Assembly (NCBI GenBank): GCA_030848545.1 | Contig: JAVDCA010000007.1 | Location: forward strand, 124,001-188,000 | DNA from: Astrobacterium formosum | GTDB lineage: Bacteria; Pseudomonadota; Alphaproteobacteria; Rhizobiales; Xanthobacteraceae | Direction of reading: 5' to 3' | DNA: 64,000 nt | In this document: positions 1,965 through 22,927 of the stretch, in pieces | Layout: each line of letters begins with the position of its first letter | Position numbering within the stretch: position 1 is the first letter of the stretch | The notes under the pieces: model-generated | The model's database searches: none | The model's input: the letters and a program-made list of their open reading frames with translations, nothing else | Told to the model about the DNA's origin: nothing | Program-made: the position numbers and the translations under genes

Positions 1965-2948
1965 CTATTTGGCGAGACCGGCCGACTTCATCGATTCACC
2001 CATGGCGGCGTCCGCCTTGACCATGAAGGCACCAAAATCCGGTCCTGCGGACCATGACATGCCGAAGTTCCGGTTGGTCATGAATTCCTTGTATTCCTTG
2101 GAGTCGTACGCCTTCTTGAGCGACGCCAAGAGCTTGTCGAATATGGGCGCCGGCAGATTCTTGGGTCCGGCAATGCCGCGCCACACGCCGGTCGCATACT
2201 CCGCGCCGGTGATTTCCTTCAGGGTCTGAAGATCCGGCAGCGTCGGATCGCGGCGTGGGGCCATCACGGTGAGGTACTTGACGCGGCCGGCATCGACCAG
2301 CGACTTGCCCTCGGGCGCAGAGCAGCACACGATGTCGACACCGCCGGCAACGAGGTCCTGCAGGCCGGCCGCGGCCCCGGTCGAGGGGACCCACGGGACG
2401 GCCGACGGCGGGATCTTCAACGCCTGCAACATGCCCACCAGCGCCAGGTGCCAGATGCCGCCTTGCGCAGTGCCGGAGGCTTTCAGCTTGCCGGGGTTGG
2501 CCTTGATGGCGTCGATGAGCGCCTTGAGATCCTTGTAGGGGCCATCGGATTTGACGATCACCACCGGAGCATCTTCGTTCACCAGCCCGATCGGCGTGTA
2601 ATCGGCCGGACCGAGCTGGGTGAGCCCCATCCAGTGCATCATCACGATCTCAACGGTGAGGAGGCCGATCGTATAGCCGTCCGGCGCCGCAGTCGCGATG
2701 GCACTGTGACCGACGACACCGTTGCCGCCAGTACGATTGACGACCGTCACCGGCTGGCCGAGATCTTTTTCCAGGAGCGTACCGACGATGCGCGCCACCG
2801 CATCGGTGCCGCCGCCCGCACCCCACGGGCAGATCAATTGGATGGGACGTGACGGATAGGCTTGCGCGAAGCTCGGCGCACCGAGCGTCGCAGTCGCCGC
2901 AGCACCGGTGGCCGCGGTCATGAACGTTCGTCTGGTCAGCCTTGTCAT
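1965..2948 (-). CDS. tctC: Tripartite tricarboxylate transporter substrate-binding protein (TctC/Bug family), copy 2
   Basis: Periplasmic binding protein of 327 residues that would deliver a carboxylate to TctAB. The start at 2948 is chosen because it follows an AGGAGG-type ribosome site and opens a twin-arginine signal (TRRTFM, then an Ala-rich segment ending SFAQA). A longer upstream open frame has no family similarity. Bug-family hallmarks are present: YPSRPIQLICPWGAGGGTD, VVNRTGGNGVVG and TAAPDGYTIG. About four residues in five match the neighbouring copy at 3237-4223, so this is a tandem duplication. It is 129 bp upstream of tctB and is probably the binding protein closest coupled to it. 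Confidence 0.93.
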   Translation of the reverse strand: MTRLTRRTFMTAATGAAATATLGAPSFAQAYPSRPIQLICPWGAGGGTDAVARIVGTLLEKDLGQPVTVVNRTGGNGVVGHSAIATAAPDGYTIGLLTVEIVMMHWMGLTQLGPADYTPIGLVNEDAPVVIVKSDGPYKDLKALIDAIKANPGKLKASGTAQGGIWHLALVGMLQALKIPPSAVPWVPSTGAAAGLQDLVAGGVDIVCCSAPEGKSLVDAGRVKYLTVMAPRRDPTLPDLQTLKEITGAEYATGVWRGIAGPKNLPAPIFDKLLASLKKAYDSKEYKEFMTNRNFGMSWSAGPDFGAFMVKADAAMGESMKSAGLAK

Positions 2949-3236
2949 GGAGAACCCCTCCTCGCGAGCCCGATGATCGGTACTCGCTTGATGCAGGCGC
3001 ATGCTAGGCGTAGCGGAACGGTAGACAAGTGGGGCAAACGGAGAAAATCTCGCCGCGCCACGATGAAAGACCGTCACGCGGCATGACGTGCGGGTTCCGA
3101 GGCGCGAACCGCGATCGAAGGCGCGGAACGTGCGATGCGCGCGTGACACTTCGCAAGGCATCGAGCGACATCGTGGCGCCGCTCGATGCCGAGCCGAATT
3201 ATCGTCGTGCGCAGAGCACCGTCTGCGCCGACGGAC

Positions 3237-4223
3237 CTACTTGGCGAGCCCAGCCGATTTCATCGAGTCGCCCATGGCGGCGTCCGACTTGGCCATGAAG
3301 GCGGCGTAGTCTTTGCCCGCGGCCCAGGACATGCCAAAATTTCGATTGGTCATGAAGTCCTTGAACTCCTTGGAGTCGTAGGCCTTCTTGAGCGACATCG
3401 TCAATTTTTCGAGGATCGGGGCCGGCAGGTTCTTGGGCGCCGCGATGCCGCGCCATGTGCCGGTCGCATAATCGGTGCCGGTGGCTTCCTTCATGGTCGG
3501 GATATTAGGCAGAGACGGATCGCGCTTTTCCGACATGACGCAAACATACTTGACGCGACCCGCGTCGACCAACGCCTTGCCCTCGGCGGCCGAGCAGCAG
3601 ACGATATCGACACCGCCCGCCATGAGGTCCTGGAGGCCCGCCGCCGATCCGGTCGACGGCACCCACGGCACCGCCGTGGCCGGAATTTTCAGCGCCTGCA
3701 GCATGCCGACCAGCGCCAAGTGCCAGATGCCGCCTTGAGCGGTGCCGGACGCCTTGAGCTTGCCGGGATTTGCCTTGATGGCGTCGAGCAACCCCTTGAG
3801 GTCCTTGTAGGGGCCATCCGCCTTCACGATGACCACCGGTGCGTCCTCATTGACGAGGGCGATCGGGGTGTAGTCGGCCGGGCCAAGCTGGGTCAGGCCC
3901 ATCCAGTGCATCATCACGATCTCGACGGTGATGATGCCGATCGTGTAGCCGTCCGGCGCCGCAGTCGAAATGGCGCTGTGTCCGACGACGCCGTTGCCGC
4001 CAGTGCGATTGACCACGGCGACCGGCTGTCCGAGATCTTTCTCCAGGAGCGTGCCGATGATGCGCGCCACCGCGTCGGTTCCACCGCCGGCGCCCCACGG
4101 GCAGATCAGCTGGATCGGCCGGGACGGATAAGCAGCTTGGGCAAAACCGGAGTTGCCGAGCGTGGCGGTGGCGGCGACACCGCCGGCAGCGGCCATGAAA
4201 GTGCGGCGAGTCAGTTTCGACAT
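3237..4223 (-). CDS. tctC: Tripartite tricarboxylate transporter substrate-binding protein (TctC/Bug family), copy 1
   Basis: Periplasmic binding protein of 328 residues, first gene of the transporter locus. The chosen ATG at 4223 follows a GAGGAGG ribosome site and opens a twin-arginine signal (LTRRTFM, cleavage expected after GFAQA). The mature part carries the same Bug signatures as copy 2 (CPWGAGGGTDAVARI, GGNGVVGHSA). The copies differ mostly in the signal peptide and in a segment near residues 235-265, which may alter ligand choice. The 288 bp between the copies hold no gene. Two binding proteins sharing one TctAB pair would widen the substrate range; that is inference. Confidence 0.93.
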   Translation of the reverse strand: MSKLTRRTFMAAAGGVAATATLGNSGFAQAAYPSRPIQLICPWGAGGGTDAVARIIGTLLEKDLGQPVAVVNRTGGNGVVGHSAISTAAPDGYTIGIITVEIVMMHWMGLTQLGPADYTPIALVNEDAPVVIVKADGPYKDLKGLLDAIKANPGKLKASGTAQGGIWHLALVGMLQALKIPATAVPWVPSTGSAAGLQDLMAGGVDIVCCSAAEGKALVDAGRVKYVCVMSEKRDPSLPNIPTMKEATGTDYATGTWRGIAAPKNLPAPILEKLTMSLKKAYDSKEFKDFMTNRNFGMSWAAGKDYAAFMAKSDAAMGDSMKSAGLAK

Positions 4224-4672
4224 TGAGTATCCTCCTCGCGAAGCGTTGTGGAATGCGCTCGCTCGATGCGGCGGAATGCTAAGCGCCGCGACGTGGCGGG
4301 CAAGGTAGGGGAACAACGCAAATCCCGTAGCTGCACACTGGCAGATCACGACACGTGCGTGAATCTGTTTTGCCGCCGCGTGCCTGAAATTCACACTGTC
4401 GCGTCCACGCGACGCGTCATCGAGTGCGCCGCCGTCGCACACGCGGCTGCGCCGTCGCGCGCGACGCGCGTCGATGATTGTCGCGAGGGCTCGCATGTCC
4501 GACCCGTCATCGTTCGGGATGCGCCCAAAAAATGCCGCAGGAAAAACTCACGAAAGTCTATGTTGCCATGCGAAACGCATGTGCTGCTATGCAGCATTCC
4601 ACTCTACTGCCTAGTGAATTTTCCCCTATATCAGGATCGCAACGTTATTCTGATTAGGAGTTACTCACCCCC
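4224..4672. other. Intergenic region between divergent tctC and DUF1127 gene
   Basis: No gene is supported in these 449 bp. The stretch separates two divergent transcription units and should hold both promoters. The last 100 bp before the DUF1127 gene are noticeably more AT-rich than the surroundings and contain two close palindromes, listed separately. Confidence 0.6.
4568..4596. promoter_or_regulatory. Two adjacent palindromes upstream of the DUF1127 gene
   Basis: ATGCGAAACGCAT at 4568-4580 (5-3-5 palindrome) is followed one base later by TGCTGCTATGCAGCA at 4582-4596 (5-5-5 palindrome). They lie about 80-105 bp before the DUF1127 start codon, in an AT-rich stretch. Adjacent palindromes of this kind are typical regulator sites, but no regulator can be named. 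Confidence 0.35.
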
Positions 4673-6362: not shown

Positions 6363-6806
6363 TCATGGTTGCGGCGCGTTGGACCCAAGCCACGCCGCGA
6401 AAGCATCGGCGACGTCGGAGCCGGTGACAAGCCCGGCTCGCCAATCGTCGCCTGCCGCTCGGACCACCATCATCCAGCCCTGCCCGAACGCATCCGCGTC
6501 CATCAGTCCCGGATTGCCGATCAGCGCCTCGTTGTGGGCGATCACGACGCCGTCGAAGGCGGCGCGCGCCGAGCCCACCCATTTGCCGCCCTCGAGGACC
6601 GCGAAGCCTCGCCCCCTCTCGAAGTCGCGCCCGATCCGCTTCGGCGTGAACACCAGGACTTCGCCCATGAGCGCCACGGCCCATGGCGTGAACCCGGCCT
6701 TGAGCGTGCCGTCACCGAGCGGCTCGTACCAGATCTGGTTGTCGACGTCGTAGTAGAAATGTTCGGGATAGTCCCTGCCCTCCACGATCGCCACGGTTCG
6801 CCTCAA
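6363..6806 (-). CDS. GcvH-like lipoyl-domain protein, last gene of the selB-linked cluster
   Basis: A 147-residue protein resembling the glycine cleavage H protein. The C-terminal half aligns with GcvH: the hairpin around the lipoyl lysine appears as LEGGKWVGSA (Lys75 here) instead of ESVKAAS, followed by NEALIGNPGLMDADAFGQGW, which matches the GcvH tail. No gcvT or gcvP is nearby, so a role in glycine cleavage is unlikely. GcvH-like proteins outside that system serve as lipoate-bound carriers, for instance in sulfur oxidation. The start is taken as TTG at 6806, overlapping the dsrE-like stop (TTGA); GTG at 6794 is an alternative. Lipoylation is inferred only from the kept lysine. Confidence 0.72.
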   Translation of the reverse strand: MRRTVAIVEGRDYPEHFYYDVDNQIWYEPLGDGTLKAGFTPWAVALMGEVLVFTPKRIGRDFERGRGFAVLEGGKWVGSARAAFDGVVIAHNEALIGNPGLMDADAFGQGWMMVVRAAGDDWRAGLVTGSDVADAFAAWLGSNAPQP

Positions 6807-7198
6807 TAGGTCAGGACGCGGTATTCGCCGTCCATGATGTCCTGGATCATGGTGGCGGCGCCCATCAGGCCGCTGCACTCCTCTATCAGATCGCTCTCAG
6901 CCATATCGAACAGGTCGAGATTGGCGGGACAGGCCCAGAAGCGTGCACCCTGCTCGTGCGCCTCCCTGATCCAGTCGCGCACCGTCTTGGGATGGCCCGG
7001 CTTGATCGTGATGGCGTCGGCGACGCCACGCCGCATCAGCTTGCCGGCCGTCGCCGTGCAGACCACATCGACCTCGTAGTCGAGCGCGGCCGCCACCGCG
7101 GCGTGATAGAACGGCGCCGCGAGCTCCTCGGGATTGCGCGGATCGGTGTTCATCAGCACGATCAGGAGCCGCCGGCTCTTCGCGTCTGGCACGCTCAC
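6803..7198 (-). CDS. DsrE/DsrF-fold family protein
   Basis: A 131-residue protein with a DsrE-like alpha/beta pattern: LLIVLMNTDP strand, AAPFYHAAVAAALDYEVDVV helix and strand, and a closing MGAATMIQDIMD helix. Members of the fold carry persulfide sulfur on a cysteine. Candidate cysteines here are Cys47, Cys90 (FWACPANLDLF) and Cys108 (EECSGLMGA). It starts with GTG overlapping the previous stop (GTGA) and its own stop overlaps the lipoyl gene, so it is translationally coupled on both sides. Downstream of selB and fdhE it could move sulfur or selenium, but which one is unknown. Confidence 0.78.
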   Translation of the reverse strand: MSVPDAKSRRLLIVLMNTDPRNPEELAAPFYHAAVAAALDYEVDVVCTATAGKLMRRGVADAITIKPGHPKTVRDWIREAHEQGARFWACPANLDLFDMAESDLIEECSGLMGAATMIQDIMDGEYRVLTY

Positions 7199-7578
7199 TG
7201 GATCACTTCCTCGATTTTCAGCCGCCGCCCCCAGGCGTCGAAGAATTCACCTTCGTTCAACACCAGCCGGTCATCGGCAAGACGGCTTTCGAGCGTGCGC
7301 AACCGCAACCGCGCCGTCGCGTTGTCGAGCGGCCCGCCGCCCGGCGCGGCGACTGGAAAGAAGGCGGCGCCATCCCAGTCGACCCCGGCGCCGGCGAACA
7401 TCGTCACGATGTCTCCCCAGGTGACCTCGTCGCCGATCACGTTGAAGAAGGTGGAGCGCAACGGCGTCACGGCGGGCCCGGAAATCTCGACCAGCACCAC
7501 CAGCGCGGTGAAATCGCCGGTGGCGGCAAAGCGCGCTCCGAGCCAGGTCTCGAACGCGGTCGGTTCAACACTCGACAA
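7195..7578 (-). CDS. Unknown protein, second gene of the selB-linked cluster
   Basis: Not recognised. A protein of about 127 residues if it starts at the TTG at 7578, which has GGAG seven bases upstream inside the previous gene; no ATG fits. It is acidic, with alternating hydrophobic strands (FTALVVLVEI) and a central segment ITWGD-like (EVTWGDIVTMFAGAGVDWDG), and ends in a charged tail (RRLKIEEVIQ). No signal peptide, membrane helix or cysteine cluster is seen, so it is probably cytosolic. It overlaps the genes on either side, which supports a shared function with the DsrE-like and lipoyl-domain proteins. Confidence 0.6.
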   Translation of the reverse strand: MSSVEPTAFETWLGARFAATGDFTALVVLVEISGPAVTPLRSTFFNVIGDEVTWGDIVTMFAGAGVDWDGAAFFPVAAPGGGPLDNATARLRLRTLESRLADDRLVLNEGEFFDAWGRRLKIEEVIQ

Positions 7579-8014
7579 GGGGAAGCTCCACCACGCTCTG
7601 CTCGAACAGGACCCAGAACGGCCGGCCACGGCTTTCGAGATACCAGGCCTCGAAGGCGGCGAGCTCGGCGGCCACGTCCGGCACCGCGCCGTCCACCGGC
7701 GTCATGGCGGCGAACATCGCCCGCGCGACCGCATCGAAGCGCACCTGCACTTCGGCACGGCTTTCGTCCTGCGTCTCCCAGCCGAGCCTGTCCGTCAGTG
7801 CCGCGCGTATCCTCGCCAGTGCGGCCGTTTCGTCCTCGGCGTCCGCGATGGCGCCGGCCACCGCCTTCATCCAGTTGAGGCGGCGATACGAAAACGCCCG
7901 TTCGGTCTCGAGCGTGGCGATACGCGCCGACGCGTCGCGTCGGAATTCGGCCTCTGCGGCTTGGGCATTACGCGCGGCGGCGGCGAGCGCGTCGAGATAG
8001 GTGACTTGCGTCAT
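7565..8014 (-). CDS. Unknown helical protein, first gene of the selB-linked cluster
   Basis: Not recognised. A 149-residue protein that is almost entirely helical by composition, with an Ala/Glu/Arg-rich N-terminal half (residues 5-60, possible coiled coil) and a segment LNWMKAVAGAIADAEDE. Its ATG at 8014 overlaps the selB stop (ATGA), so it is read directly after selB and past tRNA-Sec. It ends VVELPLVEC, with one C-terminal cysteine. It is soluble, with no export signal. The tight overlaps on both sides argue that it is real and belongs with the next three genes. Confidence 0.68.
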   Translation of the reverse strand: MTQVTYLDALAAAARNAQAAEAEFRRDASARIATLETERAFSYRRLNWMKAVAGAIADAEDETAALARIRAALTDRLGWETQDESRAEVQVRFDAVARAMFAAMTPVDGAVPDVAAELAAFEAWYLESRGRPFWVLFEQSVVELPLVEC

Positions 8015-10083
8015 CGGGCGCTCCGTGAAAGTGGCGGAAGAGAGTGGGAGTCGAACCCACCAAGGACCGGCTCGCGGCCCTTCCCAGATTTGAAGTCTGG
8101 ACGCCCCACCAGGGACGCTTCCCTTCCATTGTCGTTCGTCTCAGGCCCGCTCTCTTCCGCCGGCCGGCGGAAAAGGTCGAGCCGGTGCTTGTTGATGCGG
8201 CGCAGATCGCCGCGCCGCAACGTGACGCCATGGCGGTCGAAGAATTCGAGAATCTGGATCGCGACCTTGCGACCATTGTCGAGGCGGTCGCGGAACTGGG
8301 CGGCGGTGAACTGGCCGTCGGGCGCCTGGGCAGCGAGATCGACGGCGATCGCCACCATGTCGGCGACGGTGCCGCGCAGGAAGAAGTGGTCGTGGGCGAT
8401 CTCGTCGATGCGGCCCAGCCGACCGAGCAACTTGAACATGTGACGCACGTCCATTTCGGCGGCCCCGAGCTGGCCGCCGATGTCCCGCACCCGTGGCGGA
8501 CGAAAGCGCTCGCTGCCGGCGATGAGCGGCCGCGCCCGTCGCCACAGCGTCTCGTCCTGCGGCGTCAGGCGCACTTCGTGGCCGACGAGCCGCACCCAGG
8601 CGCCGTCGAGGGCGATCTCCTTCTGCTTCGCCATCCCCTGCAGCACCGCCGCGAAGGCCGGCGCCGGCAGCCGCGGCGTCGACGCCATGCGCAGGCGCTC
8701 GAGCCCCATGCCGGCGAGATCGGGATTGTCCTTGTGGTAGGCTTCGAGCGTCACCAGGAGGCCGCGCCTGAGGGTGAGCCAGTTCGCCGGCGAAAGCGCG
8801 ATCGTCGTCGCCTGCACGGGCACCCGGGTGAGCGCCAGTTCGTCGGTCAGGCGGTCGATCTCGTCGGAGCCGAGGGCACGGTCGCGGGCAAAGACCTTGA
8901 GGTCGACGAAGGCGGGCGGCGCCGCGACGAGAGCCGCCAGCGCCTGTCGTGGATCTTCAATGCCATGAGCGGCGAGTTGCGCCATCCGCTCGGGGGTGCG
9001 GCGCCGGCGCGCCGGCGCGCGCAGGTCGAGGAAACGGCCGCCCCCGATGGTCCTTTGCGCCGAGGTGTCGCGGATGACGAAGCGGTCGCCGGCCGCCGCC
9101 GCGATGGGACGGTCAAGGACGAGTTGGACCTGCCCCTCGCCACCAGGCATGATGGTGTCGCCGATCAGCACGATGCGGGCGCCGACTTCGGCTGCCGCAT
9201 GATGCAGCCGCACCGGCATCCATTGCGTGAGCGGTTTGGTTTCGCTTGGCAGGAGCCGCAGTCCGGCGTCGATGCGATCGGAGGGCGCGTGCAGCTCCGG
9301 ATCGAGGACGACGTCGCCGCGATGGATGGCATCCTTGGTGATGGCTTCGCCGGCGAGGTTGAGGGCACAGCGGTCGCCCGCCTGGCCGGTCTCGGCGGGG
9401 TGGTTCTGCGCATGGATCGAGCGTATGCGGGCCGTGAGGCCGCGCGGACTGACCATGACGCGGTCGCCGACCGCGACCGTGCCCGACAACACAGTTCCGG
9501 TCACCACCGTGCCGGCGCCCGCGAGGGTGAACGAACGGTCGACGGCGAGGCGGAAGCGCCCTGCCCCGGCCCGGCGGGCGGCACCGGCGGCTTCCGCCAA
9601 CAGGCGCGCGCGCAGCACATCGATGCCCTCGCTCGTGACGGCCGAGACCGGCAGAATATCCATTTCGGACAACCTGGAGGCGGTCAGGAGGTCTCGGATT
9701 TCGGTCTCCACCTCGGCGCGGCGGCTGGCATCGGCTAGATCGGCCTTTGTAAGCGCGACGATGCCGCGCTCGACGCCCAGCAGGTCGATGATGGCGAGGT
9801 GTTCGCGGGTCTGGGGCATGACGCCGTCGTCGGCCGCGACCACCAGGAGGACGAAATCGATGCCGGTCGCACCGGCTAGCATGTTGTGGACGAATTTTTC
9901 GTGGCCCGGCACGTCGACGAAGCCGAGCGTGCCGCCGCCCGGGATCGGCACATAGGCGAAGCCGAGATCAATGGTGATGCCGCGCGCCTTCTCTTCCTTG
10001 AGGCGGTCCGTATCGACACCGCTGAGCATACGGACCAGCGCCGTCTTGCCGTGGTCGATATGGCCGGCGGTGCCGATAATCAT
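8011..10083 (-). CDS. selB: Selenocysteine-specific elongation factor SelB
   Basis: SelB brings Sec-tRNA to ribosomes stalled at UGA with a SECIS hairpin. The ATG at 10083 opens [17 protein letters not shown] (G1 loop), followed by [11 protein letters not shown] (G2), [12 protein letters not shown] (G3) and LTKADLAD (G4). The beta-barrel domains and C-terminal winged helices follow, giving about 650 residues before the frame enters tRNA-Sec. No stop occurs there: the frame continues through the whole tRNA gene and adds about 38 residues before a TGA at 8011 that overlaps the next gene. The ATG overlaps the stop of the Sel1-repeat gene (ATGA). The family call is certain; whether the tail is made is not. 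Confidence 0.93.
8032..8127 (-). tRNA. selC: tRNA-Sec (selC, anticodon TCA)
   Basis: The minus-strand sequence folds as the long selenocysteine tRNA. It has an 8-bp acceptor stem (GGAAGGGA with TCTCTTCC, one G-U), anticodon arm CCAGA-CTTCAAA-TCTGG with TCA at 8091-8093, a long variable arm, and T-arm GTGGG-TTCGACT-CCCAC. The discriminator is G and CCA is encoded at 8032-8034, giving 96 bases in all. It lies wholly inside the 3' end of the selB reading frame on the same strand, so it must be processed from the selB transcript or have a promoter inside selB. Confidence 0.96.
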
Positions 10084-13352: not shown

Positions 13353-14051
13353 TCACTCCGCAGGCGTCCCGCGCGGTGTCTGGTCGCTCTTGCCGGTGGC
13401 CAGTTCACGCAGCCACTTGCGGTGATGCCGCCACGCCCAGCCGCCGGTCACCCGGCCCTTGAGCATGGCGGTGAGCGTGCCGCGCGCCCACAGGGCGCCG
13501 TAGACATGCACGATGACGATGCAGATCATCACGATGGCGCACATTGAGTGGACCAGAACGGCGAGCCGCTTCTGGTCGACCGTCGTATAGGCGGCGAAGT
13601 ACTGCTCCCAGATCACCAGGCCGGTGCCGATCATCACCAGGATGAAGGCCGTCATCGACCAGAACACACATTTCTGGGCGAAGTTGTAGCGGCCGACCTC
13701 GGGCATGTCCTCCTCGTGGCCCCTCAGGAAGACGTGCAGCTTGGCGAGCCAGGTGCCGTCCGTCGGCGTCCACAGATTGTACTTCCAGAAGCGGATGAAC
13801 AGTCCGAGATAGCCGATGAACAGGAACGTCCCGAGCCAGGGATGAATGGCGCGCGTCCAGGACCCGCCACCGAAAAGTCCGGTCAGGAAGTAGAGGCTCG
13901 GATGGAATAAAGCGAGCCCCGACAAGGCGAGCAGGACGAAGCTCCCGGCGGTCAGCCAGTGGTTGATCCGCGCATCGACCTTGTAGCGGTCGACGATGAC
14001 GGGATCGCCCCGATGGATGGCATCGCCCGACGCGACTTCACCACCTTTCAT
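13353..14051 (-). CDS. fdnI: Formate dehydrogenase-N gamma subunit, cytochrome b556
   Basis: Membrane anchor that passes electrons from the Fe-S subunit through two b hemes to quinone. It has 232 residues with four predicted membrane helices. Likely heme ligands are histidines in [20 protein letters not shown], the AIHPWLG loop, and the C-terminal [19 protein letters not shown] helix. The ATG overlaps the fdnH stop (ATGA), and the two genes are coupled as in other formate dehydrogenase-N operons. Confidence 0.95.
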
Positions 14052-15004
14052 GGCGTTTTCTCCTTCATCATGTTCTTGTCGGCCAGCATCTTGGCATTGC
14101 GCTCGTCGTCGGCCGAGACGACGCTACGGCCGGCCACGACGCGATGCAGGACGCTGATCGCCGCGAAGGCGCCGATCGCCGCAAAGCCTGCATACCTCGT
14201 CATGCCCTTCCACAGTTCGACGATCGGGCTGATCGCCGGATTGTTGGGAAGGCCCGAGTAGAGCTGCGGCTTGTCGGCGTGGTGGAGCACATACATCACG
14301 TGCGTGCCCTTGACGCCGGGCGGGTCGTAGAGGCCCGCATTGGCGAATCCGCGCGACTTGAGGTCAGCGATGCGCTTGTCGGCCCACTTCTTCATCTCGT
14401 CCTTGGTGCCGAACACGATGGCCTGGGTCGGGCATGCCTTCTGGCAGGCCGGTCCCTGGCCGACCGCGACACGGTCGGAGCAGAGCGAGCACTTGTAGGC
14501 CTTGTTGTCGACCTTGGAGATGCGCGGGATGTTGAACGGGCATCCCTTCACGCAATAGCCGCAGCCGATGCAGTTCTCCTTCTGGAAGTCGACGATGCCA
14601 TTCGAATACTGCACGATAGCGCCCGGGGCCGGGCAAGCCTTGAGGCAGCCCGGATCCTCGCAGTGCATGCAGCCGTCCTTGCGGATGAGCCACTCGAGAT
14701 TGCCCGTCTGCGGGTTCTCGTACTCGGCGTAGCGCATCAGCGTCCAACTGGCCGGCGTCAGGTCGTGCGGGTTCTCGTACACGCCCGTATTGACGCCGAC
14801 CTCCTCGCGCAGGTCGTTCCATTCCAGGCATGCCGTCTGGCAGGCCTTGCAGCCGATGCACTTCGATACGTCGATGAGCTTGGCCACCTCGGTCTGCCGC
14901 TTCTCCGGCGGCGTGATCGAGGTGGCGGAGCGCCGCAGCAGGTCCTTGTCGCCGAACTTGGGCGGCACCGGCTGGGTGGTGGGATTGGGGAGAGGAGGAA
15001 ACAT
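14048..15004 (-). CDS. fdnH: Formate dehydrogenase-N beta subunit, iron-sulfur protein
   Basis: Periplasm-facing electron-transfer subunit of 318 residues with four [4Fe-4S] clusters. The cysteine motifs are in order [41 protein letters not shown] and [22 protein letters not shown]-terminal hydrophobic helix ([17 protein letters not shown]) anchors it to the membrane as in E. coli FdnH. The start has GGGAG 8 bp upstream and lies 12 bp after the fdnG stop. Confidence 0.96.
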
Positions 15005-15016
15005 GTTCGTTCTCCC

Positions 15017-18000
15017 TTATGCCACCGGCCCGGAGATGGGCTCGATATCGACCAGGAACGCCTTGAACTCCGGCGTCTGCGAATTGGCGTCGCCGACCGG
15101 CGGCGTCAGGGTGTTGATCGGCGACGCCTTCTTGGCCTCGCCGATGAAGCCGTAGTTGAGCGGCATGCCGACCGTGTGCACGGTCTTGCCGTCGATCTTG
15201 AGCGGCTTGAGCCGTTTGGTGACGACCGCCTTGCCTTTGACGGCACCGCGGTTGGACCACACTCTCACCCAGCCACCGCGCGTGATGCCTTTCTCCCGTG
15301 CGAGTTCCTCCGAAATCTCCACGAAGAATTCGGGCTGAATGACCGCGTTCGCGTGCACCCCCTTGGTCCAGTAGTGGAAGTGCTCCACCAGCCGGTAGGT
15401 GGTCGCCACGATGGGGAATTCCTTGGCGGTGCCGAAGACTTCCATGTCGCCCTTGAACACCCGTGCGACCGGGTTGCCCTTGATCTTCGGGAACAGGGGA
15501 TTGGCCACCGGCGCCTCGAACGGCTCGTAGTGCACCGGGAACGGGCCTTCCGCCATCATGCCGCGGGCAAACAGGCGCGACACGCCTTCCGGGTTCATGA
15601 TGAACGGGCCCGCGCCCCGCGACGGCGGCAAGGTGGGCACGTAGTCCGGAATGTCCGCACCGGTCCACTTGGCGCCGTCCCAGAACACATACTTCTTGGC
15701 CTCGCTCCACGGCTTGCCGTCCGGATCCGCCGAGGCGCGGTTGTAGAGAATGCGACGGTTGGCCGGCCAGGCGAAGCCCCAGCTGCCGTACACATTCATC
15801 CCCGACGGATCGCTGTTGTCGCGCCGCTGGGCGAGATTGCCGTTCGGACCGAAGACGCCCGTGTAGATCCACTGCACGCCGTCGGTCGAACCGTCGTCCC
15901 GCATTTCGGCGAAGCTGGCGAGCTGCTGGCCGGCGGCTCGCGTCACCTTGCCCTCGCCGTCCTTCAAATCCACCAGCGCCTTGCCGTTGAGCTCCTTGAG
16001 GACCTCCTCGGCGTGGGGATGGAGCGGGTCCTTGTAGCTCCAGTCGACGGCCATGAGCGGCTCGATACCCTTGCCGCCGTCCTTCTCATAGAGCTTGCGG
16101 ATGCGCAGGAAGAGATCGGCGAGGAAGTCCGCGTCACGCCAGGACTCGTGATACGGTTCCGCCGCCGCCCACTTCCAGCTGACACAGCGGCTGGAATTGG
16201 TGAGGCTGCCTTCCTCCTCGGCGAACGACGCGCACGGAAGCATGAACACTTCCGTCTGGATCTTGGCCGGATCCACGTCATTGTACTCGCCGTGGTTCTC
16301 CCAGAACCGCGCCGTATCGGTCTCGATCGGGTCGATGCTGACCAGGAACTTGAGCTTCGAGAGACCCGCGATGCTCTTTTTGGTATGGGCGATCGACATC
16401 AGCGGGTTGAAGCCCTGGCAGATGAGACCATTGGTCTTGCCTTGGTACATGGTCTCGAACATGCGCAGGCAGTCGTAGGCGACGTCGAGCTTCGGCAGCC
16501 AGTTGTAGCCGAACTCGTTCTCCTTGGTCGCCTTCTCGCCGTACATGCCTTTCAGGAAGCTGACGTAGAACTTCCTGTAGTTCTGCCAATAGCTCGTCTG
16601 GTTGGCCTGCAGCGGCTTGAAGGTCCGCTTGCCCAGATGCGATTCGAGCGTCGGCTCGCTGTCGGTCGGCATGGCCAGATAGCCGGGCAGCGACGCCGTC
16701 AACGTGCCGATGTCGGTGATGCCCTGGACGTTGGAATGACCGCGCAGGGCGTTGATGCCGCCGCCCGGCACGCCGATGTTGCCGCACAAGAGCTGGATCA
16801 TCGCCGCGGTGCGGATGTTCTGCGCACCGTGCGAATGCTGCGTCCAGCCGAGCGCGTACATGATGGTCATGGCGCGATCGCCGGTGGCGGTCGAAGCCAC
16901 CCAGTCGGCCACTTTGAGGAACTTGTCCTTGGGTGAACCGGTGATGCGTTCCACCGTCTCCGGCGTGTAGACCGAGAAGTGCTGCTTCATCAGCTGATAG
17001 ACGCTGCGTGGGTTCTCGAGCGTGAGGTCGCGGACGGCGAAGCCGTCGGGACCGATCTCGTATTCCCAGCTGCTGCGATCGTAGCTGCGGTTCGCCTCGT
17101 TGTATCCGGAGAACAGGCCTTCGTTGAAGGCGTAGCCCTCTTTCACGATATAGGCCGCGTTGGTGTAGTTGCGGACGTATTCCTTGTGGATTTTGTCGTT
17201 GCTGAGCAGATAGTTCACCACGCCCGACAGAAACGCGATGTCGGTGCCCGGCCGGATCGGGGAATAGTGATCCGCAACGGCCGCCGAGCGCGTGAAGCGC
17301 GGGTCGACCACCATCAGCTTGGCGCCACGCTCGGCCTTCGCCTCGGTGACCCACTTGAAGCCGCACGGATGCGCCTCGGCGGCATTGCCGCCCATGATCC
17401 AGACGACATCAGCGTTCTTGATGTCGGTCCAGGAGTTCGTCATTGCACCGCGACCGAATGTTGGGCCCAGACTGGACACCGTCGGTCCGTGTCATATCCT
17501 TGCTTGGTTTTCGAGCTGCAGCAGCCCGAGGCCGCGCGCGACCTTCCAGGTGAGCCAGCCGGTCTCGTTGGTGCACGAGCTGCCGGACAGGAAAGCCATC
17601 GTGGTCCAGCGGTTGACGGTGGTGCCGTCGTTGTTCTTCTCGATGAAGTTCTGGTCGCGATCGTCCTTCATCAGTTTCGCGATGCGCTCCATCGCGAAAT
17701 CCCAGGAAACGCGCTCGAACTTGTTCGCGCCCGGCTTCCTGTACATCGGGTATTTGACCCGCGTCTCGGACCGGATGTAATCGAGCGCGGCCGAGCCCTT
17801 CGGGCACAGCGTGCCGCGGTTGACCGGATGGTCGGCGTCGCCCTCGATGTGAACGATTTCCATCTTGCCGGGCGCGCTCTTGCTCTGCGCCGAGAAGATC
17901 ACCATGCCGCAACTGACCGCACAGTACGGACAGGTGCTGCGTGCTTCCTTGGTCTGGGCCAGCTTGAAGGGCCTGATCGACACCGCATGCGCTGATTCGA

Positions 18001-18091
18001 CATCGCCGAATCCCAGCGCCGCGATGGTCGTGCCCGCCAGGCCCGCGCCGCTGCCAGCCAAGAACTGGCGCCGCGAGAGCTCCATATTCAT
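15017..18091 (-). CDS. fdnG: Formate dehydrogenase-N alpha subunit, selenocysteine-containing
   Basis: Catalytic subunit oxidising formate to CO2, with Mo- or W-bis-MGD and selenium. The two open segments 18091-17495 and 17491-15017 are one gene joined through an in-frame TGA at 17492-17494, giving 1024 residues with Sec at position 200. The context NQARI-Sec-HGPTVSSLG is the E. coli FdnG context. Other marks are a twin-arginine signal (SRRQFLAGSGAGLAG), the CPYCAVSCGM Fe-S site and RGAMTNSWTDIKNADV. A conventional gene caller would split it in two. It is first in the operon; TTGACA-17-TAGCGT at 18218-18190 is a weak promoter candidate. Confidence 0.97.
17455..17494 (-). promoter_or_regulatory. 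Bacterial SECIS element of fdnG
   Basis: Right after the UGA the message can fold an apical stem GTCC/GGGC (17477-17465) with loop AGUCU. It lies at the distance and has the loop type seen in the E. coli fdnG SECIS, whose loop is also AGUCU. SelB would bind this loop to direct Sec insertion. Confidence 0.8.
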
Positions 18092-18639
18092 GGACCTTCC
18101 CTCCTATATGACTTTTTGCCCCCGCCGGGGGACGTTCATCGGAATTCCTCAGCCGGACTCCCGATCAACGGCTTTCCGTTATGGTAGCCACGCTATTTTG
18201 GAAGAATACCAATGTCAATCTGCGCATATGAATCGCGACAACGCATCACAGCGGCGCGACGTGGATCTCGGACGGTTTCACCCGCAATGCTGAAGTGCCG
18301 GCGCAGCGATCAGAACGACTGCGGAGACGTTCAGCGTTCCGTTCGCAAGAAATTGCGTTGACGCCGGTGCGGGAGAGACTTCAAGGTGTGGGCGTGACGG
18401 CCTTTGCGGCTCCCGAGGCTCGGGGCGACCATGACGATGATCGCAGGGGGCACGATCGTGTTTGGCATGATCGTGGTCAGTATGATTTTGATGCGCATGA
18501 CTTTGGCGCACACGGCTTTGGCGCACACGGGCGTAACGCCGTTGCGTCCTTCCTGAGTGGTAAAGGCGGTTCGGCCGATCGGTGCGTTGCGGCGTATTAC
18601 TGCAGCGCAATAACCAGCATTGCCGCATTCGCCAAATCC
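18092..18639. other. Divergent intergenic region fdnG / tlpA-like, with tandem array
   Basis: 548 bp without a convincing gene. The frame of the TlpA-like gene is open through most of it from a GTG at 18295, but the sequence there is repetitive and lacks family similarity. It should contain the fdn operon promoter and the promoter of the plus-strand selenium genes, and it holds the 15-bp array listed next. Confidence 0.5.
18430..18540. repeat. Degenerate tandem array, 15-bp period, upstream of the tlpA-like gene
   Basis: Six units in register at 18451, 18466, 18481, 18496, 18511 and 18526, for example CATGACTTTGGCGCA and CACGGCTTTGGCGCA, preceded by a less regular unit from 18430. Read in the tlpA frame it gives a five-residue periodicity (HDFGA, HGFGA). 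Confidence 0.75.
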
Positions 18640-19167
18640 GTGACCACCCTCCGCGTCGGGCTCATCGCTGCCGTTTTGGCGACGACCGGACCGGCGGCGG
18701 CGACAGCTTTGACGCCGTGGTCAGGCGGCCCGCGCGTGGAATTCACGCTTGAAAACATGGCTGGTGGCCGCGCCCAGCTCTCCGAATTCCGTCACCGCAT
18801 CGTGCTGCTGCATTTCTTCGCCACCTGGTGCGAGCCCTGCCGCGCCGAGATGGCATCGCTACAAAACCTCTTCGAACGTCATGCCGGTCGCCCGCTGGCG
18901 ATCGTCGCCGTCAACGTCGCCGAGGTGAAGCCGCGCGTCGAACGTTTCCTGGCCGCCAATCCGGTATCTTTTCCGGTCCTCCTCGACAGCGACCGTACGG
19001 TCGCCAGAGCGTGGCGGGTCGCGGCGTTGCCCACGACCATCATCCTCGATGCACAATCGGTTCCGGTCCTCATCGCCGAGGGGGATGTGGATTGGGGCCA
19101 TCCCGACATCGACGCCAAGATCAAGGAACTGCTTGCCAAGGAACTGCTTGCGAAGTCCGATCCCTAG
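18640..19167 (+). CDS. Exported TlpA-like thioredoxin-fold protein
   Basis: Periplasmic thiol-disulfide protein with the motif ATWCEPC (Cys64 and Cys67) and a cis-Pro loop (ALPTTIILD). Residues 1-23 from the GTG at 18640 form a plausible signal peptide ending PAAATA, giving 175 residues. No ATG exists in frame, so the start is uncertain and could lie further upstream. The C-terminus carries a 15-bp duplication that encodes KELLAKELLAK. It is 36 bp ahead of the transglutaminase gene and diverges from the formate dehydrogenase operon. A role in maturing exported redox enzymes is possible. Confidence 0.78.
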   Translation: MTTLRVGLIAAVLATTGPAAATALTPWSGGPRVEFTLENMAGGRAQLSEFRHRIVLLHFFATWCEPCRAEMASLQNLFERHAGRPLAIVAVNVAEVKPRVERFLAANPVSFPVLLDSDRTVARAWRVAALPTTIILDAQSVPVLIAEGDVDWGHPDIDAKIKELLAKELLAKSDP

Positions 19168-19203
19168 TCGACCCAGAAACAGAATACCCCCAAGGAGGAA
19201 ACG

Positions 19204-20316
19204 ATGACCACCCGACGCCAATTCCTTTCGACCATGGCTGCGTTGTCGGCTGCGAGCACCCTGCCCCAGTCCGCGTTCGCCCAGGCAAGCGCCCCTGTCT
19301 TCGCGCCGCGACCCGGCTCCTGGCGCAATTTCCAACTGGTGACCCGTCTCGAAATCGCCGCCGCGGACGGTCGCGCCCAGGCTTGGGTGCCGCTGCCGTC
19401 GCTGACCGAATCCGAGTGGATCCGCCCGGGCGGCAACGAATGGACCACCAATGCGGGATCGGCCGAGGTCCGCCGCGACGACAAGTACGGCGCCCAGTTC
19501 CTGCATGTGGAATGGGCCGCGGGCGAAAAGGCTCCGGTTGTCGAAGTCACCAGCCGTTTTGCGAGCCGGGATCGTGCGGTGGATCTGGCCAAGCCCGGAA
19601 ACGCGCCGGCGCTGAGCGAGGCGGAACGTCGGCTTTATACCGAAGGCACCGACCTCATCCCGGTCGACGGTATCGTCAAGGAGACCGCCGGCAGGATCAC
19701 CACCGGCAAGACCACGGATATCGACAAAGCCCGTGCCATCTACGAGTGGGTGGTCGACAACACCTTCCGCAATGCCGCCACTCGCGGCTGCGGCATCGGC
19801 GACATCGCCGCCATGCTCAAGACCGGCAATCTCGGCGGCAAATGCGCCGACCTCAACGCCCTTTACGTGGGCCTCGCCCGCGCCGCCGGCCTGCCCGCCC
19901 GTGACGTCTACGGCCTGCGGGTGGCGCCATCACGGTTCGGCTACAAGAGCCTCGGCGCCGGCTCGGAGATCGTCACCAAAGCTCAGCATTGCCGCGCCGA
20001 AGTGCACCTATCGGGCCATGGCTGGGTACCGGTCGATCCCGCCGACGTGCGCAAGGTCGTCCTCGAGGAGCCGCCCGGCAAGCTCGCCATCGACGACGCC
20101 AAGGTGGTCGCCGCCCGCCATGCGCTGTTCGGTGCGTGGGAGGGCAACTGGCTCGGCTATAACGCCGCCCATGATCTGACGCTGCCGGGAGCCAAGGGAC
20201 CGAAGCTCGAATTCCTGATGTATCCACAGGCCGAGACGGCGGCCGGCCGGCTCGACTGCCTCGATCCCGACACCTTCAAATACACGATCCGGGCGAAGGA
20301 ACTCACGGCAGCCTGA
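19204..20316 (+). CDS. Tat-exported transglutaminase-like domain protein
   Basis: 370 residues. A strong AAGGAGG site precedes the ATG. The N-terminus is a twin-arginine signal (TTRRQFLSTMAALSAASTL, cleavage near SAFAQA). The transglutaminase-like core lies at about residues 150-290: the nucleophile region GGKCADLNALYVGLARAAG, the histidine in CRAEVHLSGHGWVPVDP and the following Asp. Proteins of this superfamily act as peptidases or cross-linkers. Sitting between tlpA and tusA, it probably shares their transcript, but its substrate is unknown. Confidence 0.85.
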   Translation: MTTRRQFLSTMAALSAASTLPQSAFAQASAPVFAPRPGSWRNFQLVTRLEIAAADGRAQAWVPLPSLTESEWIRPGGNEWTTNAGSAEVRRDDKYGAQFLHVEWAAGEKAPVVEVTSRFASRDRAVDLAKPGNAPALSEAERRLYTEGTDLIPVDGIVKETAGRITTGKTTDIDKARAIYEWVVDNTFRNAATRGCGIGDIAAMLKTGNLGGKCADLNALYVGLARAAGLPARDVYGLRVAPSRFGYKSLGAGSEIVTKAQHCRAEVHLSGHGWVPVDPADVRKVVLEEPPGKLAIDDAKVVAARHALFGAWEGNWLGYNAAHDLTLPGAKGPKLEFLMYPQAETAAGRLDCLDPDTFKYTIRAKELTAA

Positions 20317-20446
20317 TGCCGTCCCGGACAATGACGAAAGGCGGACGTTGCCAGCCGGCAACGTCCGCGATGCTTGGCCCCTATGGTGAGGTGACCAGAG
20401 CGTGGAGCCACGATCAAACCGCATTGGCGACGATTCATCGACGGCG

Positions 20447-20683
20447 ATGGCCGTCGGCGAGGAAACCGTCGTCGATCTGCGCGGACTGCGGTGCCCATAC
20501 CCGGTCCTGCGCGCCAAGAAGGCGATGCGCACGGTGCCGGTGGGGACCGTGCTGGTGCTCGAATGCACCGACCCGCTGTCCGTCGTCGATGTTCCCCATT
20601 TCTTCAACCAGACCGGTCACGAGCTTATCGACCAGGCGAGCGACGGCACGCTGCACGTCTTCCGCATCCGCAGGACGAAATGA
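20447..20683 (+). CDS. TusA family sulfurtransferase-like protein
   Basis: A 78-residue TusA-family protein that carries persulfide, or here perhaps selenide, on a cysteine. The signature is LRGLRCPYPVLRAKKAM, a CPxP motif at the start of the first helix, with the fold ending VFRIRR. The start is taken as ATG at 20447; GTG at 20402 is possible. It lies 28 bp before a cysteine desulfurase and just upstream of selD, so selenium mobilisation for selenophosphate is the most likely use. Confidence 0.83.
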   Translation: MAVGEETVVDLRGLRCPYPVLRAKKAMRTVPVGTVLVLECTDPLSVVDVPHFFNQTGHELIDQASDGTLHVFRIRRTK

Positions 20684-20711
20684 TACCGGGCCTTTGCGCA
20701 AGGTGCTGTGA

Positions 20712-21878
20712 ATGAAGCCGATCTATCTCGACCACAACGCCACTACCCCGGTCGATCCCGCCGTGCTCGATGCCATGCTGCCGTTCCTGCGCGAGGAGTT
20801 CGGCAATCCGTCCTCGGCCCACGTCCTCGGCCGGCGCGCGCGCAATGCGGTCGAACAGGCGCGAGCCGAGGTGGCGGCGCTGATCGGCGCCCGTACCGAC
20901 GAGATCGTCTTCACGGGCGGCGGCACCGAGGCGAGCAACATGGCGATCCGCGGCAGCCTTGCCGGAGGTCGCGGCGGGATCGTCACCTCGGCGATCGAAC
21001 ATCCGGCGACGGAGGAATGCTGCAGCCGACTCGAACGCGAGGGGCACGCGGTTCGCCGCGTGTCGCCGGATCCGCATGGCCGTCTCGATGCGCAGGCCGT
21101 CGTCGACGCCATCGACGACGGTGTTGCGCTGGTCACGCTCATCCATGCCCAGAACGAGATCGGCACGCTGCAGCCGATCGCCGAGATCGCTCCGGCCGCC
21201 CACGACCACGGCGCCCTCGTCCACGCCGATGCCGCCCAGTCGCTCGGCAAGGTGCCGGTCCATGTCGACGCGCTCGGGGTCGATCTCCTGTCCATCGCCG
21301 GCCATAAGCTGTATGCGCCCAAAGGGGTCGGCGCTTTGTTCGTCCGGCGCGGGGTCGAGCTTCAACCGATCGTGGTCGGTGCCTCTCAGGAGCACGGGCT
21401 GCGGCCGGGCACGGAGAATGTCGCCTTCATCGTCGGTCTCGGCACCGCCTGCCGTATCGCCGCCGAACGGCTGGTGATCGATCGAGCGCGCATCAGTGAA
21501 TGCACCGCCGACCTTGCCGCCCGGCTCGCGCGCGCGGTGCCCGGTTTGATCGTCGTCGGTGAGGAGGTGGAGCGGCTGCCGAATACGCTCAACGTCCTGT
21601 TCCCGTCGGTCTCCGGCCGTCGGCTCCTGGAACGCTGCCCGCAGGTCCTGGCCTCGACCGGGTCGGCTTGCCATGCCGATCGTGAGGACCCCTCCGCCAT
21701 CCTGACAGCCCTCGGCATCGACGCCGAAGCCGCACTCGGCGCCGTGCGCCTGTCGCTCGGCCGCTCCACCACGGCAGCCGATATCGAACAAGCGGTCGTG
21801 CATCTCACAGAGGCCTGGCATTCCCTTCGATTTGCCGAACCCGCCGTCGCCCATACGACTTCGGAGTCCCTCCCATGA
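20712..21878 (+). CDS. Cysteine desulfurase (NifS/IscS-type)
   Basis: PLP enzyme of 388 residues that takes sulfur or selenium from cysteine or selenocysteine. The marks are [30 protein letters not shown], the PLP lysine in [17 protein letters not shown], and the catalytic cysteine loop [14 protein letters not shown]. The selD start overlaps its stop (ATGA) and tusA precedes it. This fixed order TusA-desulfurase-SelD suggests a dedicated selenium donor rather than the housekeeping Fe-S enzyme, as no iscU, iscA or suf genes are near. Confidence 0.93.
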
Positions 21879-22927
21879 ACATCCATCAACCCGTTCGTCT
21901 CACCAGCCTCGCCCACGGCGGCGGTTGCGGCTGCAAGCTCGCACCTTCCGTCCTGCAGCAACTGCTGGCCGGGCAGGCGAACAACATGCCATTCAAGGAG
22001 CTTCTGGTCGGGACCGAGACCGGCGACGACGCCGCCGTATGGCAACTCGACGAGAATACCTGCGTGATCGCCACCACCGATTTCTTCATGCCCATGGTTG
22101 ACGATCCGTTCGACTTCGGCCGCATTGCGGCGACCAATGCGATCTCGGACGTCTACGCCATGGGCGGACGCCCCATCATGGCGCTGGCGATCCTCGGCAT
22201 GCCCATCGACAAGATGCCGGCCGAAATGGTGCGCGAGATTCTGCGCGGCGGCGCCGCCGTGTGCGCCGACGCCGGCATTCCGGTGGCCGGCGGCCATTCG
22301 ATCGACTCGCCGGAGCCCATTTACGGCCTCGCCGTCATCGGCACCTGCCGGCCCGAACAGGTGCGCCGCAACAGCGGCGCTCGCGCCGGTGACACGCTCA
22401 TCCTGACCAAGGCACTGGGGGTCGGCATCTATTCTTCGGCGATCAAGAAAGGAATGTTGCCCGACGACGGCTATGCCGAGATGATCGCTTCGACCACGCT
22501 GCTCAATCGCATCGGTGCCGAACTCGCCCGCGATCCGGACGTGCACGCCATTACCGACGTCACCGGCTTCGGCGTGCTCGGTCACGGCCTCGAAATGGCT
22601 CGCGGCTCGGGTGTCGGATTGACGGTCTCGCTCGCCCATATCGCCCTTCTCGCCCACGCGGACAGGCTGGCGCAGGCGGGGTGCATCACCGGTGCTTCGC
22701 ATCGCAACTGGGCAAGCTACGGCGGTGAGGTCGACCTGCCGGCCGATCTGCCGGACTGGCGGCGCCATCTACTCACCGATCCGCAGACTTCGGGCGGCCT
22801 CCTCGTCGCCTGCGCAGCCGAACGCGCCGACGCGATCCTGCTGTCGATCCGCGACGCCGGCAATCCCCACGCACGCCGCATCGGTGCCGCCGAATCCGGA
22901 CCGGCGCGGATCCGGGTCAGGGCTTGA
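21875..22927 (+). CDS. selD: Selenophosphate synthase SelD
   Basis: Makes selenophosphate from selenide and ATP, the donor for SelA. It has 350 residues with catalytic Cys18 and Lys21 in [11 protein letters not shown], so this is a cysteine, not a selenocysteine, form. ATP-binding stretches [10 protein letters not shown] and [19 protein letters not shown] are intact, and the C-terminal [12 protein letters not shown] is typical. Last gene of the plus-strand group, coupled to the desulfurase by a 4-bp overlap. Confidence 0.97.

What the first reader, a model, noticed from the sequence alone, without database searches (positions are those of the whole stretch)
6363..8014. Four overlapping genes with a DsrE-fold and a lipoyl-domain protein, coupled to selB
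Directly downstream of selB and tRNA-Sec lie four genes that all overlap at start/stop codons. Two are unknown proteins, one has a DsrE fold with three cysteines, and one is a GcvH-like protein with a lysine at the lipoyl position (EGGKW). No glycine cleavage, sHdr or dissimilatory sulfur genes are near. The order fdn-fdhE-selA-Sel1-selB-selC-four genes suggests a sulfur or selenium relay, or an assembly system, for selenoprotein formate dehydrogenase. I know of no description of this set as a system.
Basis: partly seen in the sequence, partly recalled or inferred. Interest (0 to 1): 0.78.

Follow-up and report, generated by a model that had tools for sequence, protein, structure and literature searches.

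The report
Lipoate-armed selenium relay beside selB
Next to the genes for a selenium-containing formate dehydrogenase, some bacteria carry two proteins related to a pair used elsewhere for oxidising sulfur; here the pair likely hands selenium to its activating enzyme on a predicted lipoic-acid arm, which would help to answer the open question of how selenium reaches that enzyme.

Summary
The four genes are real and end the run fdnGHI-fdhE-selA-sel1-selB(selC)-orf1-orf2-dsrE-lbpA. selB stays open through selC and overlaps orf1; that nesting, and two unnamed ORFs there, were already published (Mukai 2021). The new part is the last pair. Both proteins are sisters of the DsrE and LbpA of the sHdr-LbpA sulfur-oxidation system, not glycine-cleavage parts. 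Of the 80 best DsrE loci in named genomes, 44 lie in selenocysteine/FDH loci, 31 in sHdr operons, none in both, 5 in neither. One branch splits the two DsrE types (100/83). Of 16 sel-type genomes searched, none has a close sHdrB1 (one has a 34% identical protein). Many sel-type loci also carry a lipoate-ligase-like gene, a few LipS2. I read the pair as a lipoate-dependent chalcogen relay of sulfur-oxidation kinship, most likely delivering selenium to SelD. Kinship and linkage are well supported; the selenium cargo is inferred. Against it: 60 of 66 SelA-positive genomes of a class sample lack the pair's DsrE; this window's LbpA lacks the Cys pair that marks LbpA; its genome shows no dedicated ligase. 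Sulfuration of the FDH cofactor is the main rival.

The parts
6363..6794 (-). lbpA: GcvH-like lipoate-binding protein, lipoyl Lys in EGGKW, no cysteine (GTG start preferred; TTG 6809 possible)
   Evidence: PF01597 69 bits; LbpA side of the tree, apart from GcvH at 100/100; Cys count 0
6803..7198 (-). dsrE: DsrE-type sulfurtransferase, Cys47, Cys90, Cys108
   Evidence: PF13686 and PF02635 over cut-off; sister of sHdr-operon DsrE
7195..7578 (-). orf2: 127 aa, predicted alpha/beta, unknown function
   Evidence: No Pfam/NCBIfam match; 8 of 41 relatives, all SelA-positive; model mean pLDDT 91.9
7565..8014 (-). orf1: 149 aa, predicted all-helical, unknown function, coupled to selB by ATGA
8011..10083 (-). 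selB, open through selC and ending on the ATG of orf1
   Evidence: published arrangement
8032..8128 (-). selC (tRNA-Sec)
   Evidence: ARAGORN, Rfam RF01852 77.4 bits
10080..10877 (-). Sel1-repeat protein
   Evidence: PF08238
10858..12291 (-). selA
   Evidence: TIGR00474 582 bits
12304..13257 (-). fdhE
   Evidence: TIGR01562 293 bits, over cut-off
13353..14051 (-). fdnI-like cytochrome b subunit
   Evidence: ORF; name by order and sight, found in the same order in relatives
14048..15004 (-). fdnH-like Fe-S subunit
   Evidence: ORF; name by order and sight, found in the same order in relatives
15017..18091 (-). fdnG: selenoprotein formate dehydrogenase alpha; Sec TGA at 17494-17492, SECIS_3 at 17497-17439
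20712..21878 (+). NifS-like cysteine desulfurase or Sec lyase, 4-nt overlap with selD
   Evidence: TIGR03402 411 bits, under its cut-off of 531
21875..22927 (+). selD
   Evidence: TIGR00476 432 bits, over cut-off

Best explanation
dsrE and lbpA are a sulfurtransferase and lipoate-binding-protein pair of sHdr-LbpA kinship that lies in a selenocysteine/formate-dehydrogenase operon without sHdr genes, where it likely relays selenium to SelD on a predicted lipoyl arm. Shown by sequence: kinship, linkage, lack of a close sHdrB1 in the sel-type genomes searched, two invariant DsrE cysteines, an invariant lipoyl Lys, and in many loci a neighbouring lipoate-ligase-like gene (in a few LipS2). Inferred: a NifS-like desulfurase or Sec lyase loads a Cys of DsrE with perselenide (or persulfide); the dihydrolipoyl arm of LbpA takes or reduces it; HSe- is released at SelD, which makes selenophosphate for SelA. 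Also inferred: orf1 and orf2, translationally coupled to selB, are Sec or FDH biogenesis factors of the same operon that do not depend on the pair.
For: Of the best 80 of 277 DsrE loci, 44 sel-type, 31 sHdr-type, 0 both, 5 neither; lbpA in 42 of the 44. Of 7 non-Hdr genomes without selA/selB in the stretch, 6 have SelA. DsrE types split at one branch, 100/83, in all 200 bootstrap trees looked at. LbpA apart from 12 GcvH at 100/100, sel-type one clade at 76/98. No close sHdrB1 in 16 of 16 sel-type genomes, 3 of 3 controls positive. Lipoyl Lys in 51 of 51, DsrE Cys90 and Cys108 in 54 of 54 sel-type rows; lplA-like gene in 30 and LipS2 in 7 of 54 loci. selD within 80 nt of lbpA or dsrE in 9 of 54 loci. 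Linked FDH has TGA at the Sec site in 16 of 16 readable rows. In a class sample the 6 non-Hdr DsrE genomes are all SelA-positive, against 66 of 387. Precedents: dihydrolipoate accepts sulfane sulfur in vitro (PMC6067878 section 13); the DsrE-domain protein YedF/FdhU is linked to SelD and Se-dependent FDH (PMC5322559 passages).
Against: No biochemistry. 60 of 66 SelA-positive genomes in the class sample lack a sel-type DsrE, so the pair is not needed for Sec as such. 8 of 11 sHdr-type DsrE genomes there are SelA-positive too, so genome co-occurrence does not tell the types apart; linkage does. One genome (L108) has the pair without SelA, and in G085 and G234 it is not near sel genes. The window's LbpA has no Cys (31 of 51 sel-type LbpA lack both hallmark Cys), and the own genome's one PF21948 protein is LipB by sight, so its lipoylation is only predicted. 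Linkage cannot separate Sec synthesis from FDH assembly, since both sit in the operon.
Confidence: 0.45

Rival explanations
1. The pair carries sulfur, not selenium, to the molybdenum cofactor of the formate dehydrogenase, helping or replacing FdhD.
For: fdnGHI and fdhE lead the same run; in sHdr the pair handles sulfur (passages).
Against: FdhD-family genes in 14 of 14 genomes, 12 over cut-off, with and without the pair; no Cys-FDH seen at the Sec site among 16 readable rows.
Confidence: 0.2
2. LbpA is a dithiol redox partner that keeps SelD, SelA, DsrE or the Sec of FdnG reduced; it carries no selenium.
For: Most sel-type LbpA have lost the two hallmark Cys but all keep the lipoyl Lys; a TlpA/ResA-like gene lies near selD in the window.
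Against: DsrE with two invariant Cys next to lbpA in 46 of 54 loci points to chalcogen transfer.
Confidence: 0.17
3. The pair hitches a ride in the operon and serves an unrelated sulfur task.
For: Accessory presence; L108 has it beside an ABC transporter in a genome without a SelA hit.
Against: Linkage kept across many genera and 6 of 7 unlinked carriers have SelA.
Confidence: 0.1
4. It is a remnant of sHdr sulfur oxidation or a second glycine-cleavage H protein.
For: Homology to both.
Against: No close sHdrB1 in 16 of 16 sel-type genomes (G016 has a 34% identical match); the own genome has a separate, better GcvH (134.5 against 68.9 bits); LbpA stands apart from GcvH at 100/100.
Confidence: 0.04

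Closest known systems
sHdr-LbpA sulfur oxidation system (DsrE3C, sHdr, LbpA, sLpl(AB), LipS1/LipS2; Hyphomicrobium denitrificans)
   Same: DsrE and LbpA are sisters; lipoyl Lys; lipoate-ligase-like gene and LipS2 in part of the loci
   Different: No close sHdrB1 in 16 sel-type genomes; Ala-Cys in place of Cys-Cys in DsrE; Cys pair of LbpA often lost; lies in a Sec/FDH operon
YedF/FdhU (TusA+DsrE fusion linked to SelD)
   Same: DsrE domain tied to selenium and FDH (PMC5322559 passages)
   Different: No TusA/SirA domain, no TIGR03527 match; paired with LbpA
Nested selBC with ORF1/ORF2 (Mukai 2021, PMC8124441)
   Same: selC inside the selB frame, stop overlapping the next ORF
   Different: That text names neither DsrE nor GcvH and gives no function for the ORFs
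Glycine cleavage H protein
   Same: Fold and lipoyl Lys
   Different: Separate clade, under the equivalog cut-off

Membership tests
sHdr-LbpA system | sHdr core subunits in the genome (sHdrB1 tested) | tested here: not met
   No close match in own genome or in 15 other sel-type genomes; 3 of 3 controls positive
sHdr-LbpA system | LbpA lipoyl Lys | tested here: met
   51 of 51 sel-type rows, window included
sHdr-LbpA system | LbpA N- and C-terminal Cys pair (PMC6067878 section 6) | tested here: not met
   Window has no Cys; 18 of 51 sel-type and 24 of 26 sHdr-type rows have both
sHdr-LbpA system | LbpA groups with LbpA, not GcvH | tested here: met
   100/100
sHdr-LbpA system | Dedicated lipoate ligase beside lbpA | tested here: not met
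   None in the window run; the own genome's one PF21948 match is LipB by sight. Met in 30 of 54 sel-type loci
sHdr-LbpA system | Sulfite formation from sulfane sulfur | not testable with these tools
   Needs biochemistry
Glycine cleavage GcvH | NCBIfam gcvH equivalog cut-off | tested here: not met
   44 bits against 115.85
YedF / FdhU (TIGR03527) | TusA/SirA domain fused to DsrE; model match | tested here: not met
   131 aa with DsrE only; no TIGR03527 or SirA match at E up to 1
DsrE2 (NF047629) | Equivalog cut-off | tested here: not met
   28.6 bits against 210
DsrE family (PF02635) | Gathering score | tested here: met
   30.5 against 22.7 bits
Nested selBC (Mukai 2021) | selC wholly inside the selB frame, stop overlapping the next start | tested here: met
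Mukai ORF1/ORF2 | Sequence identity with orf1/orf2 here | tested here: inconclusive
   Same position and class, but the sequences are in figures that are not held

The most novel reading that the evidence does not exclude
Lipoic acid has a selenium job: a DsrE-LbpA pair that parted from sulfur oxidation, often kept with its own lipoate ligase, is a protein-bound perselenide relay that feeds SelD for selenocysteine formate dehydrogenase, so that no free selenide is needed.
Probability: 0.38. Interest if true: 0.9.

Novelty: new variant of a known kind. Interest (0 to 1): 0.72.

Why it matters
The form of selenium used by SelD in vivo, and its delivery system, are called incompletely elucidated in a 2026 review (PMC13188914, passages). 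A linked carrier pair with a nameable prosthetic arm would make the question testable. It would also give protein-bound lipoate a role outside 2-oxoacid dehydrogenases, glycine cleavage and sulfur oxidation, and explain a lipoate-ligase-like gene in a selenium operon. It warns annotators as well: relatives of this DsrE carry names such as 'peroxiredoxin', and the LbpA scores as a glycine-cleavage H protein.

Tried and rejected

A literal sulfur-oxidation reading was tested and dropped. FdhD replacement was tested and weakened: FdhD-family genes in 14 of 14 genomes, 12 over cut-off.

I first took the selB frame through selC as a find of my own; it is published and is not claimed. In the quick DsrE tree the fragment row L167 spoiled the root; it was dropped, with the same-genome rows L095, L125 and L112. 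In the first LbpA tree several GcvH rows were read in a wrong frame; one search replaces it, also without the fragment L161.

Print searches for such a pair in selenium loci: (open-licence PMC only; listings, of which I opened the papers named in the report). None of the papers opened describes DsrE-LbpA in Sec/FDH loci; most subscription papers and all preprints were out of reach.

Full report
OBSERVATION. On the minus strand the window holds fdnG (in-frame TGA with SECIS_3), fdnH, fdnI, fdhE, selA, a Sel1-repeat gene, selB, selC, then four small genes at 8014-6363. DsrE and GCV_H are over Pfam cut-offs; the first two genes have no Pfam match and no significant NCBIfam match. selD is in the same window on the other strand, overlapped by 4 nt by a NifS-like gene. 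The selB frame stays open through selC and ends on the ATG of orf1. Among 46 loci with selB and selC this nesting holds in 43, the window included (L112 and L211, both without it, are one genome), and 33 of the 43 put an ATGA or GTGA in frame with orf1. It was published for Alphaproteobacteria by Mukai in 2021, with two unnamed ORFs limited to that class (whole text read; figures not held). My orf1/orf2 are most likely these.

DISTRIBUTION NEAR HOME. Among 41 genomes (own and 40 relatives) SelA over cut-off is in 13. orf2 is in 8, all SelA-positive. In these 8 the order fdn-fdhE-selA-sel1-selB-orf1-orf2 recurs as far as the contigs reach, with tRNA-Sec in each of the seven others. A close dsrE is in 4 (G000, G016, G023, G033; one weak hit at 32% identity in G002), and close LbpA relatives are in the same 4. 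Thus orf1/orf2 follow Sec more closely than dsrE-lbpA, which is an accessory pair. In G023 the run is orf1-orf2-lipoate-ligase-like-dsrE-lbpA with selD convergent 30 nt off. In G033 (84% complete, no SelA hit) the DsrE and LbpA sit with HdrA/B/C-like genes, LipS2 and a ligase-like gene: the sHdr-LbpA layout.

DISTRIBUTION IN NAMED GENOMES. A DsrE alignment found 277 relatives in the genome collection; the best 80 were kept. Scored by neighbours: 44 sel-type, 31 sHdr-type, 0 both, 5 neither. Sel-type loci come from Rhodoplanes, Pseudorhodoplanes, Pseudolabrys, Bradyrhizobium, Pseudaminobacter, Paracoccus, Amaricoccus, Azospirillum, Tagaea and others. Of the 44, 37 hold selA or selB, 42 lbpA, 35 orf1, 31 orf2, 23 a ligase-like gene, 6 LipS2. 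Seven genomes whose stretch shows no sHdr and no selA/selB were searched (L108, L115, L123, L124, L137, L138, L139): 6 have SelA, L108 has none and lies by unrelated genes. 4 of 4 sHdr-type genomes in that call lack SelA. With eight further stretches (window, L009, L014, L207-L211; L095, L125 and L112 dropped as the same genomes) the non-Hdr set is 54, of which 40 hold selA or selB. dsrE and lbpA are adjacent on one strand in 46 of 54, two more are 156-160 nt apart, three are further apart, three lack lbpA.

CLASS SAMPLE. In 387 genomes drawn evenly from the class, 17 have a DsrE at E below 1e-40. 11 lie with sHdr genes, 6 do not; all 6, own included, are SelA-positive, against 66 of 387 (own genome left out, hypergeometric p 1.2e-4, not corrected for kinship, and several share a family). 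Of the 6, the own genome and three others have sel genes in the stretch read, G085 and G234 do not. Told against my reading: 8 of the 11 sHdr-type genomes are SelA-positive as well, so linkage, not genome co-occurrence, separates the types, and 60 of 66 SelA-positive genomes lack a sel-type DsrE.

KINSHIP. The DsrE tree (86 rows) needs one change between types, support 100/83. The LbpA tree rooted on 12 GcvH separates LbpA from GcvH at 100/100 and makes the 51 sel-type rows one clade (76/98, not starred), with the sHdr rows around it. This favours a move from sulfur oxidation to the selenium locus but does not prove the direction. Residues (numbering): DsrE Cys90 and Cys108 are invariant in 54 sel-type rows; the residue before Cys90 is Cys in 31 of 33 sHdr-type and Ala in 50 of 54 sel-type rows. 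The LbpA Cys pair, a family hallmark (PMC6067878 section 6), is in 24 of 26 sHdr-type and 18 of 51 sel-type rows. Within sel-type loci the pair goes with a ligase-like gene (17 of 18), and its absence mostly without one (23 of 33; Fisher p 8e-6, not corrected for kinship). The window is of the Cys-less, ligase-less kind. Of 16 sel-type genomes searched with sHdrB1, none has a close match; G016 has one at 34% identity; three controls, one of them the source of the query, match at 74-100%.

MECHANISM. Shown: linkage, kinship, residues, no close sHdrB1. From knowledge of the families: in the sHdr pathway DsrE3C and LbpA handle protein-bound sulfane sulfur (PMC12423496 and PMC11582611, passages; PMC6067878 section 13, part 1), and dihydrolipoate accepts sulfane sulfur in vitro (same section). 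Inferred: without sHdr the pair no longer oxidises but passes on or reduces the chalcogen. The neighbours that use a reduced chalcogen are SelD (within 80 nt of lbpA or dsrE in 9 of 54 loci) and the FDH. FdhD-family genes, which serve the FDH cofactor, are in all 14 genomes tested, 12 over cut-off. The linked FDH is a selenoprotein where readable (TGA in 16 of 16 rows out of 92 stretches searched; in L124 a SECIS_3 lies 0.7 kb behind dsrE, in L137 about 7 kb). I therefore commit to selenium delivery to SelD at 0.45, with cofactor sulfuration at 0.2 and a redox role at 0.17. orf1 is predicted all-helical and orf2 alpha/beta, both confident models without a usable PDB match; I place them as Sec or FDH biogenesis factors by linkage alone.

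NOVELTY. A selenium-linked DsrE has a precedent in YedF/FdhU. A DsrE-LbpA pair in a selenium operon was not described in the papers I opened; PMC10332631 and PMC6067878 hold no word beginning 'selen' or 'formate', nor PMC12423496 'selen' or 'formate dehydrogenase'. I rate it a new variant of a known kind.

Noticed in passing
window 8011-8128, minus strand: selB is open through the whole of selC and ends on the ATG of the next gene; so in 43 of 46 loci. Published by Mukai 2021.
   Followed up: yes
window 18295-22927, plus strand: A TlpA/ResA-like thioredoxin (under cut-offs), a transglutaminase-like gene (by sight) and a NifS-like gene lead up to selD, the last overlapping selD by 4 nt.
   Followed up: partly
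L108 10001-10900: dsrE-lbpA beside an ABC transporter, in a genome without a SelA hit: the one carrier found that has no sign of Sec.
   Followed up: partly
L011 8943-9623, L012 9042-9725, L013 10197-10868: Where dsrE-lbpA are missing, a D-Ala-D-Ala dipeptidase-like gene (by sight) faces orf2 in three genomes.
   Followed up: no
window 1965-4496, minus strand: Two similar neighbouring genes that look like tricarboxylate-transporter binding proteins (by sight).
   Followed up: no
L071 7886-9186: LipS2 of the sHdr-type operon in G033 is split over two overlapping ORFs (profile positions 1-167 and 162-285), perhaps an assembly frameshift.
   Followed up: no
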